This document shows, piece by piece, positions 38,088 through 49,872 of a stretch of 64,000 nt of DNA. The translations under genes were made by a program, and so were the position numbers. The notes under the pieces are model-generated. The model ran no database searches, was not told the DNA's origin, and saw only the letters and a list, made by a program, of their open reading frames with translations. Source of the stretch: Brachyspira hampsonii 30446 (lineage in GTDB: Bacteria; Spirochaetota; Brachyspiria; Brachyspirales; Brachyspiraceae); NCBI RefSeq assembly GCF_000316195.1, contig NZ_JH994110.1, positions 760,537 through 824,536 of the forward strand. Direction: 5' to 3'. Position 1 is the stretch's first letter, and the number at the start of each line of letters is the position of its first letter.

Positions 38088-40180
38088 TTATTTTACCAAA
38101 CTAGAGAAATCAAGCATATTTTTAAAAATTTTATCTACTGAAGAAAGCAAAGCTATACGATTATTTTTTATTTTTTCATCGTCTACATTTACCATAATAT
38201 CTTTGAAAAATTTGTCTAATGGTTCATAAAGACTTGCTAATAAAGCAAATGTTTTTTCATATTCTCTATTTTCCATAAGTTTGTTTACTTCATTTAATTT
38301 TTCTTTATATGTATTATATAATGATTTTTCTGCTTCTTCTTTTAATAATGATTCATCTAAGTTAGTATCTTTAGCAGATTTAATCATATTTTTAATTCTT
38401 TTAAATACTATTAAAAGATTAGAGAATAAAGCCTCATTTTTCTTTCTAAACTCATCAATGGCTTCTATTTTTAAGTAAGCGTCATACATATCGTCTATTC
38501 CTGTAGAAAGAACGCCTGCAACTGAATCTTTAGAAAAATCAATGTCATTTTCAAAACGGGATTTAAAGAACTCGAATATATCTTTTATTAAATCTTCGCT
38601 TTTATTATTTCTTGCATCTTTAGGCATAGAATTAATTGACTGTTCTATTAATTTTTTAAGATTAACATGCTTTTTAGATTTTATAAGTATATTAATGATA
38701 CCTAAAGCCTGTCTTCTTAAAGCATTAGGATCTTGAGAACCTGTTGGTATATCTCCTACATAGAATCCAGCTGCTATATTATCCATTTTATCAAGTATAG
38801 CTATAGCCTTACCTGTATCATTAGAAGGTATTTCATCGGAAGCAAATAAAGGTCTGTACTGTTCATTGATAGCTAAAGCAATATCATCATTAAGGTTCAT
38901 AGCTTTTGCAAAATATCCTCCCATTATACCCTGAAGCTCTGGGAAATTATAAACCATATTGCTTACTAAATCTGATTTCATATATTTAATAGCTTTAAGT
39001 ATATTTTCTTTATCTTTTTCATATCCTAAAAGTGTTATTAAAAGCTCAGAGTTTTTCTCAAGTCTTTTTACTTTATCAGCAACACTTCCAAGCTCTTTTC
39101 TAAACATAAGCATTTCAAGTCTTTCATTCATCTCGTCCATACCTTTTCTTATATCTTCTTGGTATAGGAATCTTCCGTCTGAAAGTCTTGCTGTTAAAAC
39201 CCTTATATTTCCAGCTATTATCTGAGGAGTTTTGGGCTGATTAGCTGTTATTACAAATACATTAGTTAAAGAACCGTCTTTTTTACATAATGGGAAGTAT
39301 TTCTGATGTTCTATCATTTCGCTTGTCAATACTTCTTTAGGCACTTCCAAAAATTTAGAGTCAAATTCTGCAGTTAGTAAGTAAGGCTCCTCTGTCAAAT
39401 CTACAACTATTTCAGATACTTTTTTCTTAGAAACAGCTTCAAAACCTAATTCTTTTTCTATATTTTCTAATTGATTTATAATATTTTCTAACCTTTTTTC
39501 TCTTGATACTATAACATGCTTTTCTAATAATATTTTTTCATAGTCTTTAGGATTATTAATTTCTTTAAATTCAGGAGAAAGAAGTCTATGTCCTGTTACT
39601 TTGTTATTAGTTTCTATTCCAGCAACTGAAGTTTTAATAATTTCATTTCCGAATAATGCTATTACATTTCTTATTGGGCGGACAAAAGCAAAATCTTTAT
39701 TTCCCCATCTCATTTTCTTTTTAAAATCTATACTTGAAACAATACTTTCTAGTTTTTCTTCAAATAGTTTTTTAGTTTCTATACCTTTTTTTCTTTTTTT
39801 ACAAATATATATTTTTTTCCATTTACTTCTTTTATATATGGTTTATCAAATGATTCATTTTCATCAATATTTTTTACTGAATTAGCATTGATATTATGAG
39901 ATTTCAAAAAACCTTCTCCTGCTTTTGTAGGATTACCATCTTTAAAAGCACTTTCAAATAAAGGTCCTCTAAATTCTATTACTTCATCTTTTGATTTTTC
40001 TTCTATGTTTTCTGCTAAAATTGCTAATCTTCTTGGGGTAGTGTATGAGCTAACAGAACTGAAATTAATACCATTATTTTTTAATGTATTTTCTATTATT
40101 TTTTTAAAACTCATACTTGCAGGATATGCAAAATCTGCCGGTATCTCTTCAACCAATATTTCAATGAGTAAATCTTTCAC
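38088..40180 (-). pseudogene. glyS: Glycyl-tRNA synthetase beta subunit, frame broken at A AAA AAG
   Basis: Two frames together give a complete GlyS of about 697 residues. The N-terminal part (39779-40180) holds LLIEILVEEIPADFAYPA and YTTPRRLA. The C-terminal part (from about 39790 to 38088) holds MRWGNKDFAFVRPIRNVIALFG, HQKYFPL, ANQPKTP and GRFLYQEDI. The break lies in A7-G-A7 at 39786-39800, where the zero frame reads GAA AAA AAG GTA TAG. A single extra A, or a -1 slip, restores KKGIETKKLF, as expected for the family. GlyS is normally essential, so it may be expressed by frameshifting or transcript slippage, or the base may be a sequencing error. glyQ is not adjacent. Confidence 0.9.
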
Positions 40181-40419
40181 TTTAATTTTCCTTAAAATAA
40201 TAATTATTAATGTCCTATATTGTATATTTATAGTATAAAAAAAACAATATTTTTTGAATGTTAATTTGCAATTTTGTTAACTATTTGTTTATTTGTAAGG
40301 TTATATTAATAAAGAATAAGAATATTTAAAGAAAATAATTATTATTTTACGATAATATATAATAAGATATTGATTTTATATCATTAATATACTATATTTA
40401 TAAATTGGAAGATTTGAAT

Positions 40420-41712
40420 ATGCAGACAGTAACAACTAAACAAAATATATTAATAATAGATGATGAAGAGGATATACTGACTACTTGTCAGAATATTTTA
40501 GAAGATGAAGGCTATGGAGTAGATATAGCCAAAAATTATAAAGAAGCAGAGTACATATTTAATAGTAAGAAGATAAATTTAGTATTTTTAGATGTATGGC
40601 TTCCCGATGTAGATGGGCTAGACATACTTTCTAACATAAAGGAAAAATATCCTAATACTACTGTAATAATGATGAGCGGACATGCTGGTGTTGAAACCGC
40701 TGTAAGAGCTACTAAAATGGGGGCTTATGACTTTTTAGAAAAACCTATTAGCATATCCAAGCTTCTTTCAAGCTGTGAAGATGTATTCAAAGAGAGTATA
40801 GATAAAGCGGAAGTATCAGTAAATGAGGAAAATTGCTCCAATAAACATTGCGGTAATGTAGGATATAAGATTAAACAGAGAACTATAGCTAAAAGCATTG
40901 TTGTAAGCGGTTTTGCCTTAATGGAGGGAAGAAAAACTGCATTAACATTAGTTCCTGCTGATGTTAATACAGGTATAGTTTTTATTGATATTAATACAAA
41001 TACTCATATAAAATTATCACATAATAATATACTTTCTAAAGATAAATCCGGAGCGGTTAATTCTACTGCTTTGGTATGCGGAAATAGATATATAAAGACT
41101 ACAGAGCATTTCTTGGCGGCACTTCATATGATGGGTATTACTAATTTAATAGTAAAATGTGATGGAGAAGTACCAAATGTTGATGGTTCTGCTTTAGTAT
41201 TTTGCAATGCTTTAAAAGAGGCTGGTTTTGTAGAGCAGGACGGTTATATAGAGCCTATAGTGATAGATACTACTTTAACTTATGGTAATGTTAATGATAA
41301 TGAAACTTATATAATACTTTCGCCTTATGATGGGCTTGAAGTAAGTCTTCGTATAGATTTTGCTGGTTCTATAGGAGTACAGGAATATACATATAAATTT
41401 GAAAATTTCGATCAGTTTACCGATGAGATTGGAAGAGCAAGATCATTTAATACAATAGACAATATTGATTATGCACAAAAAATGGGAATGGCTGGAAGCG
41501 GTATGATAGGAAGTCATATAATTCTTTGCGATGGAAAAGTAATTAATACCAAACTTCATTTCGATAATGAGTTTGTAAGACATAAAATTTTGGATATAAT
41601 TGGAGATTTATATATTTTAGGCAGACCTATAAGGGGCAAAGTTGTTGCTAATAAGTCATCTCATTCTTTCAATCATTCCGTTGTACATGATCTTGCAAAT
41701 AGATATTTATGA
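40420..41712 (+). CDS. lpxC: Response-regulator receiver fused to LpxC deacetylase
   Basis: Protein of 430 residues. Residues 1-120 form a complete receiver: acidic pocket IIDDEEDI, phospho-acceptor D58 (LVFLDVWLP), MMSGHAG and K108 (FLEKPI). From about 150 to the end is UDP-3-O-acyl-N-acetylglucosamine deacetylase, the committing step of lipid A synthesis. Its zinc/catalytic motifs are KTTEHFLAALHMMG, FVRHKILDIIGDLYILG and KSSHSFNHSVV. I start at the ATG at 40420, which has GGAAG 8 nt upstream, rather than the TTG at 40405. The fusion suggests direct phospho-control of lipid A synthesis. A sigma factor gene follows. Confidence 0.93.
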   Translation: MQTVTTKQNILIIDDEEDILTTCQNILEDEGYGVDIAKNYKEAEYIFNSKKINLVFLDVWLPDVDGLDILSNIKEKYPNTTVIMMSGHAGVETAVRATKMGAYDFLEKPISISKLLSSCEDVFKESIDKAEVSVNEENCSNKHCGNVGYKIKQRTIAKSIVVSGFALMEGRKTALTLVPADVNTGIVFIDINTNTHIKLSHNNILSKDKSGAVNSTALVCGNRYIKTTEHFLAALHMMGITNLIVKCDGEVPNVDGSALVFCNALKEAGFVEQDGYIEPIVIDTTLTYGNVNDNETYIILSPYDGLEVSLRIDFAGSIGVQEYTYKFENFDQFTDEIGRARSFNTIDNIDYAQKMGMAGSGMIGSHIILCDGKVINTKLHFDNEFVRHKILDIIGDLYILGRPIRGKVVANKSSHSFNHSVVHDLANRYL

Positions 41713-48968: not shown

Positions 48969-49872
48969 TTATACTTAAACCTGTAATTCTGCTTATATCT
49001 TCATTACTCATATTCATTTTTTTTTAAATTTAATGCTATGTCTTTTGCTTTATTTATTTCTCCTTGCTCTATTCCTTCTTTAATTCCTTCTCTTATTCCT
49101 TCTTCTTTACCTAGTCTTCTTTCCTCATCAAGCATTATTTGATTGCCGTATAAATAAGCCTCTTTTTTTCGTATTTCATCATCATTAATCTGCTTTTTAC
49201 AAAATTATTATATTTTTTCTGTACTTCTTCCATTATAGGTTTTTCTTTTACTATTTCAGACATAGACGCCTCCAAATTTTTACTTGTAAATATTTTGATC
49301 CAATAATTTAAATCTTTAGATAATACATTTTTCTTAAATTTTTTTAATTCTATTATATGTATTTGCAAATGATCAGTGAGAAGTTTTTTATTATTCATCT
49401 CATAAAGCATATAGCATGAATGTATATTTTTAGTTTTATCTAAATTAAAATTTAATAGATTTATACTTATTACAGGGGTAAGCTCATCATATCTTTCACC
49501 ATGTTTTAATAATTTACTATAATTAGCAGCCCAATAATAAAGTATGCGTTCTGGAAATCTTGAATTACCTTGTAATTGTATCTCTATTATAACAACAGAA
49601 CCATTTTGGGTAATACACTTGACATCAAGGCGTCTGCCCACCTTCGGTGCTATAGTCTATTTTAAATTCTTATTCTTTTTTAAATTAAAAGGAGTTAATA
49701 TTTCCACAGAACGAAATGTTTTCATATTAGCATTAAGCATTATAGAATTGATAAAGTCCAAAAGTATAGATTCGCTGCTGCCTTTATCAGTAAAGAGATA
49801 TCTTATAAAATAATCATTCAAAGGATTGAAATATTTTATTTTTGTGGTATTTAATTTTTTAATCATATACAT
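48949..49872 (-). pseudogene. Rpn-family recombination-promoting nuclease, decayed
   Basis: The frame can be followed from MYMIKKLNTTKIKYFNPLND (49872) through an in-frame TAG at 49657-49659, DVKCITQNGSVVIIEIQLQG with the PD-(D/E)xK acidic residues, YYWAANYSKLL and IHIIELKKF. A deleted A in the A-run at 49194-49198 moves it to DDEIRKKEAYLYGNQIMLDE, then the Gly/Glu-rich EEGIREGIKEGIEQG. An extra A in the run at 49017-49025 shifts it again before NMSNEDISRITGLS and the stop at 48949. This is the Rpn (PD-(D/E)xK nuclease/putative transposase) family, common in Brachyspira. Three lesions make it inactive as sequenced. Confidence 0.85.

What the first reader, a model, noticed from the sequence alone, without database searches (positions are those of the whole stretch)
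39780..39810. glyS frame broken exactly at a dnaX-type slippery heptamer
Reading the minus strand, the zero frame is GTA AAA AAA GAA AAA AAG GTA TAG. The A AAA AAG heptamer is in the register used by E. coli dnaX. A -1 shift there gives AAA AAA GGT ATA GAA, which restores the expected GlyS sequence and bypasses a stop two codons on. GlyS is normally essential, so the full protein is probably made. Programmed -1 frameshifting, RNA polymerase slippage on the A-run, phase-variable tract length or a one-base sequencing error are all possible. I see no clear upstream stimulatory Shine-Dalgarno.
Basis: partly seen in the sequence, partly recalled or inferred. Interest (0 to 1): 0.75.

Follow-up and report, generated by a model that had tools for sequence, protein, structure and literature searches.

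The report
One missing A breaks glyS frame
The gene for one half of an essential enzyme (glycyl-tRNA synthetase) in this gut spirochaete appears cut in two because one A is missing from a run of eight; the related species examined have the gene intact, so this is most likely a sequencing slip or a very recent mutation rather than a designed genetic switch.

Summary
In this Brachyspira genome the glyS frame runs from window 40180 into GTA AAA AAA GAA AAA AAG GTA TAG and stops at 39779. The rest of GlyS (565 codons, no stop) continues in the -1 frame. Programmed frameshifting is not supported. All 25 other Brachyspira genomes searched read through the site in one frame. In 19 the run is A8 where the window has A7; in 6 a synonymous G interrupts it. 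The window lacks one A, and the heptamer is a by-product: modelled loss of one base leaves in-frame A_AAA_AAG in 14 of 84 coding A8 runs and some A-heptamer in 47 of 84. No stimulatory hairpin (z -0.09) or Shine-Dalgarno-like stimulator was found. Private one-base A-run breaks occur in the same region of other assemblies (3 in G008, 1 in G004). GlyS is single-copy and strongly constrained on both sides of the break. Best reading: a one-base homopolymer error (about 0.62). Next: a real, recent deletion tolerated by unprogrammed slippage (about 0.25). Raw reads would settle it; none were available.

The parts
39779..40180 (-). glyS 5' part, 133 aa ORF from GTG to TAG (GlyRS beta subunit, N-terminal part)
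   Evidence: PF02092 E 2.4e-27
38088..39785 (-). glyS 3' part in the -1 frame, 565 codons plus stop, no internal stop; mechanical ORF from ATG is 38088-39713 (541 aa)
   Evidence: PF02092 positions 100-531, E 1.9e-138
39785..39791 (-). in-frame A_AAA_AAG heptamer; one sense codon (GTA) lies between it and the zero-frame TAG
39786..39792 (-). A7 run that is A8 in 19 of 25 related genomes and interrupted by a synonymous G in the other 6
39794..39800 (-). upstream A7 run, separated from the second run by one G
39690..39785 (-). stretch downstream of the heptamer tested for a stimulatory RNA structure: no more stable than shuffles
   Evidence: MFE -7.7 kcal/mol, z -0.09

Best explanation
The deposited sequence lacks one A in an eight-A coding run of glyS. 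The likeliest cause is a homopolymer length error in the sequencing or assembly of this genome; the living strain would then carry an ordinary uninterrupted glyS. The dnaX-like heptamer is an automatic by-product of losing one A from GAA AAA AAA GGT, and a nearby stop is common after such a loss. Shown here: the missing A relative to the 25 relatives examined, single copy, constraint, and similar breaks in sister assemblies. Inferred: that the base is missing only in the data.
For: 25 of 25 other Brachyspira genomes have an uninterrupted frame here. GlyS is probably needed: glyQ (alpha) is intact, the two pieces of this gene are the only beta-subunit matches, and no single-chain GlyRS exceeds the family cut-off. 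The region after the break is as constrained as in relatives (dN/dS 0.040 against G005; G005-G004 comparator 0.038) with one private replacement. Among pure, flank-matched coding A8 runs, 1 of 33 is one base shorter in G000 than in G004 (glyS), and 1 of 33 the other way; A7 runs 0 of 116 and 0 of 113; A6 runs 1 of 282 and 0 of 284. [quoted passage not shown] A B. hyodysenteriae study notes that long homopolymers in these genomes complicate sequencing (PMC8845278, passages).
Against: No reads, platform or strain name were available for this genome, so error is not shown directly. The assembly is otherwise good (completeness 99.99), and only one clean private break passed the filter in the window. 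A degraded PDDEXK_2 gene in the same window has an A-run break together with a stop and an insertion, which looks like true mutational decay. Replication slippage prefers the same long runs as sequencing error does.
Confidence: 0.62

Rival explanations
1. A real, recent one-base deletion in this strain, tolerated because ribosomes (or RNA polymerase) slip unprogrammed on the A-run and make enough full-length GlyS.
For: The heptamer is in the right register and the -1 frame is fully open and constrained. Only tRNA-Lys(UUU) was found among the tRNA loci read (30 loci from 33 matches), the situation in which A_AAA_AAG is discussed as shift-prone in E. coli (PMC5009743, passages). E. coli with a frameshift in essential rpoB is viable with 5% suppression (PMC7022156, abstract and outline). 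Frameshifting indels within 3-8 base repeats were often bypassed in a laboratory drift experiment (PMC3812077, passages).
Against: Without stimulators, the shift-prone heptamers gave 2.1 to 10 times a 0.055% background in E. coli (PMC4066793, section read). E. coli RNA polymerase showed no detectable slippage on fewer than eight As (PMC6260861, section read). An essential enzyme at such levels would be costly (inference).
Confidence: 0.25
2. Tract-length polymorphism: the run varies within the population (contingency-type), and the assembly took the A7 allele.
For: A8 runs change length between G000 and G004 (1 of 33 in each direction), more often than A7 or A6 runs.
Against: All 25 relatives have an in-frame length, and 6 have the run interrupted by a synonymous G. 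Switching off an essential gene has no evident benefit. No conspecific strain was available.
Confidence: 0.07
3. Split gene: the 133-aa and 541-aa products are made separately (re-initiation) and assemble into a working beta subunit.
For: An ATG (39713) lies 65 bases after the stop and opens 541 codons.
Against: No relative of the 25 is split. The two ORFs leave 24 residues of the conserved protein uncovered (read). No terminator-like site was found between the parts, and promoter-like matches were below the shuffle mean (13 against 17.3).
Confidence: 0.03
4. Programmed -1 ribosomal frameshifting of the dnaX type.
For: In-register A_AAA_AAG with a zero-frame stop after one further codon.
Against: 0 of 25 relatives share the two-frame layout. 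No hairpin (z -0.09) and at best a 3-base Shine-Dalgarno match upstream. In-frame A_AAA_AAG is common: 53 sites in 48 of 330 ORFs. In this genome's own dnaX (open 532-codon frame) the only in-frame A-heptamer of the three types scanned is at codon 41, far from where E. coli uses one (E. coli position from PMC5009743, passages).
Confidence: 0.03

Closest known systems
E. coli dnaX -1 programmed frameshift
   Same: A_AAA_AAG in the same register; apparently one tRNA-Lys(UUU) for AAA and AAG
   Different: No conserved two-frame layout, no upstream Shine-Dalgarno stimulator, no stimulatory hairpin; here the shifted product would be the only useful one
Poly(A) transcriptional slippage rescue in insect endosymbionts (Buchnera, Blochmannia)
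   Same: AT-rich genome, one-base change in an A-run of a needed gene
   Different: Those tracts are described as long poly(A) runs (PMC5009743, passages); here the run is A7, in a 3-Mb genome
Suppressed frameshift in essential rpoB of E. coli (PMC7022156, abstract and outline)
   Same: Frame break in an essential gene, possible rescue at a shift-prone heptamer
   Different: There the mutation was isolated and proven; here neither the mutation nor the rescue is shown
Homopolymer frameshift errors in genome assemblies
   Same: Single-base loss in a long A-run, absent from the relatives examined, in a single-copy constrained gene
   Different: Platform and reads of this genome are unknown

Membership tests
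dnaX-type programmed -1 frameshifting | Slippery heptamer in register before a zero-frame stop | tested here: met
dnaX-type programmed -1 frameshifting | Upstream Shine-Dalgarno-like stimulator | tested here: not met
   Longest match to AAGGAGGT within 22 bases upstream is 3
dnaX-type programmed -1 frameshifting | Stable downstream RNA structure | tested here: not met
   MFE -7.7, shuffles -7.5 +/- 2.19, z -0.09; pseudoknots not tested
dnaX-type programmed -1 frameshifting | Two-frame layout conserved in relatives | tested here: not met
   0 of 25 other Brachyspira genomes
dnaX-type programmed -1 frameshifting | Measured frameshifting and both products | not testable with these tools
   Needs a reporter, ribosome profiling or mass spectrometry
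Transcriptional slippage rescue at poly(A) | Run long enough for RNA polymerase slippage (8 As or more for E. coli RNAP, PMC6260861) | tested here: not met
   Two A7 runs separated by G; threshold read and measured for another species
Transcriptional slippage rescue at poly(A) | mRNAs of mixed length | not testable with these tools
   No RNA data
Phase-variable homopolymer tract | Length varies among close strains in and out of frame | tested here: inconclusive
   Between species 25 of 25 are in frame; no conspecific strain was available
Homopolymer sequencing or assembly error | Base missing in a long homopolymer, absent from relatives, in a needed single-copy gene | tested here: met
Homopolymer sequencing or assembly error | Raw reads disagree with the consensus | not testable with these tools
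   No reads held

The most novel reading that the evidence does not exclude
The deletion is real and fixed in this strain. A Brachyspira cell would then live with an essential tRNA synthetase subunit made only by unprogrammed slippage on a short A-run, which would show that AT-rich spirochaetes with one tRNA-Lys tolerate such breaks.
Probability: 0.22. Interest if true: 0.6.

Novelty: not a real feature. Interest (0 to 1): 0.15.

Why it matters
It shows how a homopolymer base loss in an AT-rich genome creates a convincing dnaX-like slippery site by arithmetic alone, so such sites need orthologue checks before they are called recoding. If the deletion were real, it would be a natural case of an essential gene kept alive by unprogrammed frameshifting.

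Tried and rejected
Programmed frameshifting: rejected on relatives, RNA fold and Shine-Dalgarno scan. A second GlyRS making glyS dispensable: not found. An old pseudogene: rejected, since constraint is little changed on both sides and there is no further stop. A generally error-ridden assembly: not supported, since one clean private break was found in the window and 1 of 33 A8, 0 of 116 A7 and 1 of 282 A6 pure coding runs are shortened relative to G004. Naming the species: the first 20,000 of 25,552 bases of contig C2 gave no match in the plasmid collection; the B. hyodysenteriae B-78 announcement (PMC4991709, whole text) gives sizes that do not fit this assembly. Literature: the search for Brachyspira, frameshift and homopolymer returned 4 papers, and the one for GlyRS, beta subunit, frameshift and slippage listed 20 of 40; no listed title or abstract start describes this case.

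Filters: the ORF counts per target are redundant across query genomes (for example 251 for the window), G005 and G009 are only partly covered, and only breaks with exactly one non-triplet gap, more than 60 bases into the ORF, with at least three in-frame relatives were counted. The PDDEXK_2 break and looser hits were therefore dropped, and part of the output was cut from view. The G025 break is a two-base gap and not in an A-run. In one search, runs with substitutions or differing flanks, and runs within 60 bases of an alignment end, were left out.

Full report
What is there. The window is part of a Brachyspira genome (G000, contig C3:760537-824536; 3,037,350 bases in 4 contigs; completeness 99.99). 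The species was not identified. On the minus strand glyS starts at 40180 (GTG) and reads 133 codons to a TAG at 39781-39779. The remaining 565 codons of GlyS follow in the -1 frame, from 39785 to 38088, without a stop. Both parts match PF02092.

Relatives. A search of 26 genomes of the genus, the window's own included, found the locus in all 26. In the 25 others the frame starting at the same GTG or ATG stays open past the site to the end of the fetched locus, 691-694 codons. Seven of them with wider DNA fetched show a complete 697-codon gene. In the alignment, 19 of 25 have G-A8-GG where the window has G-A7-GG; the other 6 have a synonymous GAG, two of them also AAG, that interrupts the run (L007, L009, L012, L018, L019, L020). 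So the window lacks one base, and the run is not kept as a slippery element.

Why the heptamer is no coincidence. Taking one A from GAA AAA AAA GGT leaves GAA AAA AAG GT, an A_AAA_AAG in exactly the register that restores the frame. As a count: removing one A from each of 84 coding A8 runs in 400 kb of G004 left in-frame A_AAA_AAG in 14, A_AAA_AAA in 31 and A_AAA_AAC in 2, and 35% of all 392 modelled losses (A7 to A9) met a new stop within five codons. In-frame A_AAA_AAG occurs 53 times in 48 of 330 ORFs of 400 kb of G000, glyS included.

Stimulators. The 96 bases from the end of the heptamer onward fold no better than shuffles (-7.7 against -7.5 +/- 2.19 kcal/mol). The best Shine-Dalgarno-like match in the 22 bases upstream is three bases. 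For E. coli without stimulators, the shift-prone heptamers gave 2.1 to 10 times a background of 0.055% (PMC4066793, section read). E. coli RNA polymerase gave no detectable slippage on fewer than eight As (PMC6260861, section read). In favour of some leakage, the only tRNA-Lys found reads UUU (30 loci from 33 tRNA matches; the three rows printed are one gene). A single lysine tRNA is the condition under which A_AAA_AAG is discussed as shift-prone in E. coli (PMC5009743, passages).

Is the gene needed? glyQ is intact in this genome, PF02092 finds only the two pieces of this gene, and the single-chain GlyRS model finds three matches, none over its cut-off. Constraint is strong on both sides: window against G005, dN/dS is 0.050 before and 0.040 after the break (comparator G005 against G004: 0.030 and 0.038). 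Against G004, G008 and G006 the window gives 0.066-0.080 before and 0.044-0.052 after the break. One private replacement falls after the break, against 2, 1, 3 and 1 in G005, G004, G008 and G006 (all). The break is therefore very recent, rescued, or not real.

Base rate of such breaks. In the same region of eight Brachyspira genomes a strict filter found private interior frame breaks as follows: window 1 (glyS), G004 1 (A-run), G008 3 (A-runs), G025 1 (two bases, not an A-run), G006 0, G022 0, and G005 and G009 0 with partial coverage. Among pure, flank-matched coding runs of conserved genes, 1 of 33 A8 runs was one base shorter in G000 than in G004 and 1 of 33 the other way; for A7 the counts were 0 of 116 and 0 of 113, for A6 1 of 282 and 0 of 284. 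G008 has the contig length that I recall for B. intermedia PWS/A, which was sequenced by 454 (PMC3163572, passages). A platform comparison that included B. [quoted passage not shown] B. suanatina, matched by scaffold length to G025, used Ion Torrent plus MiSeq (PMC4603578, passages). The window's own platform is unknown. Its 400 kb hold six N-runs of 206 to 1,224 bases, which may be assembly gaps or stretches withheld by the operators, so they say little about the platform.

Verdict. A one-base homopolymer error is the most economical reading (0.62). A true recent deletion kept alive by unprogrammed slippage is possible (0.25). It has precedent in an E. coli rpoB frameshift suppressed at 5% (PMC7022156, abstract and outline) and in bypass of indels in 3-8 base repeats (PMC3812077, passages). 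Programmed frameshifting is close to excluded at the genus level. Raw reads would decide; none could be reached here.

Noticed in passing
window 49022-49866, minus strand: A degraded PDDEXK_2 (PD-(D/E)XK nuclease family transposase) gene with an in-frame stop, a small insertion and an A-run frame break beside an in-frame A_AAA_AAG; its C-terminal Gly-Ile-Lys-Glu repeat differs in number between the window and G004.
   Followed up: partly
window 40405-41712, plus strand: A response-regulator receiver domain fused to LpxC in one 435-aa protein (PF00072 and PF03331), divergent from glyS; ORFs of 1,305-1,323 bases aligned to it or to each other appear in the output for G004, G005, G008, G009 and G022. 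One literature search (10 of 27 papers listed) showed no title about it.
   Followed up: partly
G008:C2:622001-702000 (loci L121-L124): Three private one-base frame breaks at A-runs in this 80-kb stretch, in an assembly that is probably B. intermedia PWS/A; its annotation may hold false pseudogenes.
   Followed up: partly
G000:C4:766170-766242: Only one tRNA-Lys gene (UUU) was found among the tRNA loci read (30 loci from 33 matches), so AAA and AAG are apparently decoded by one tRNA.
   Followed up: yes
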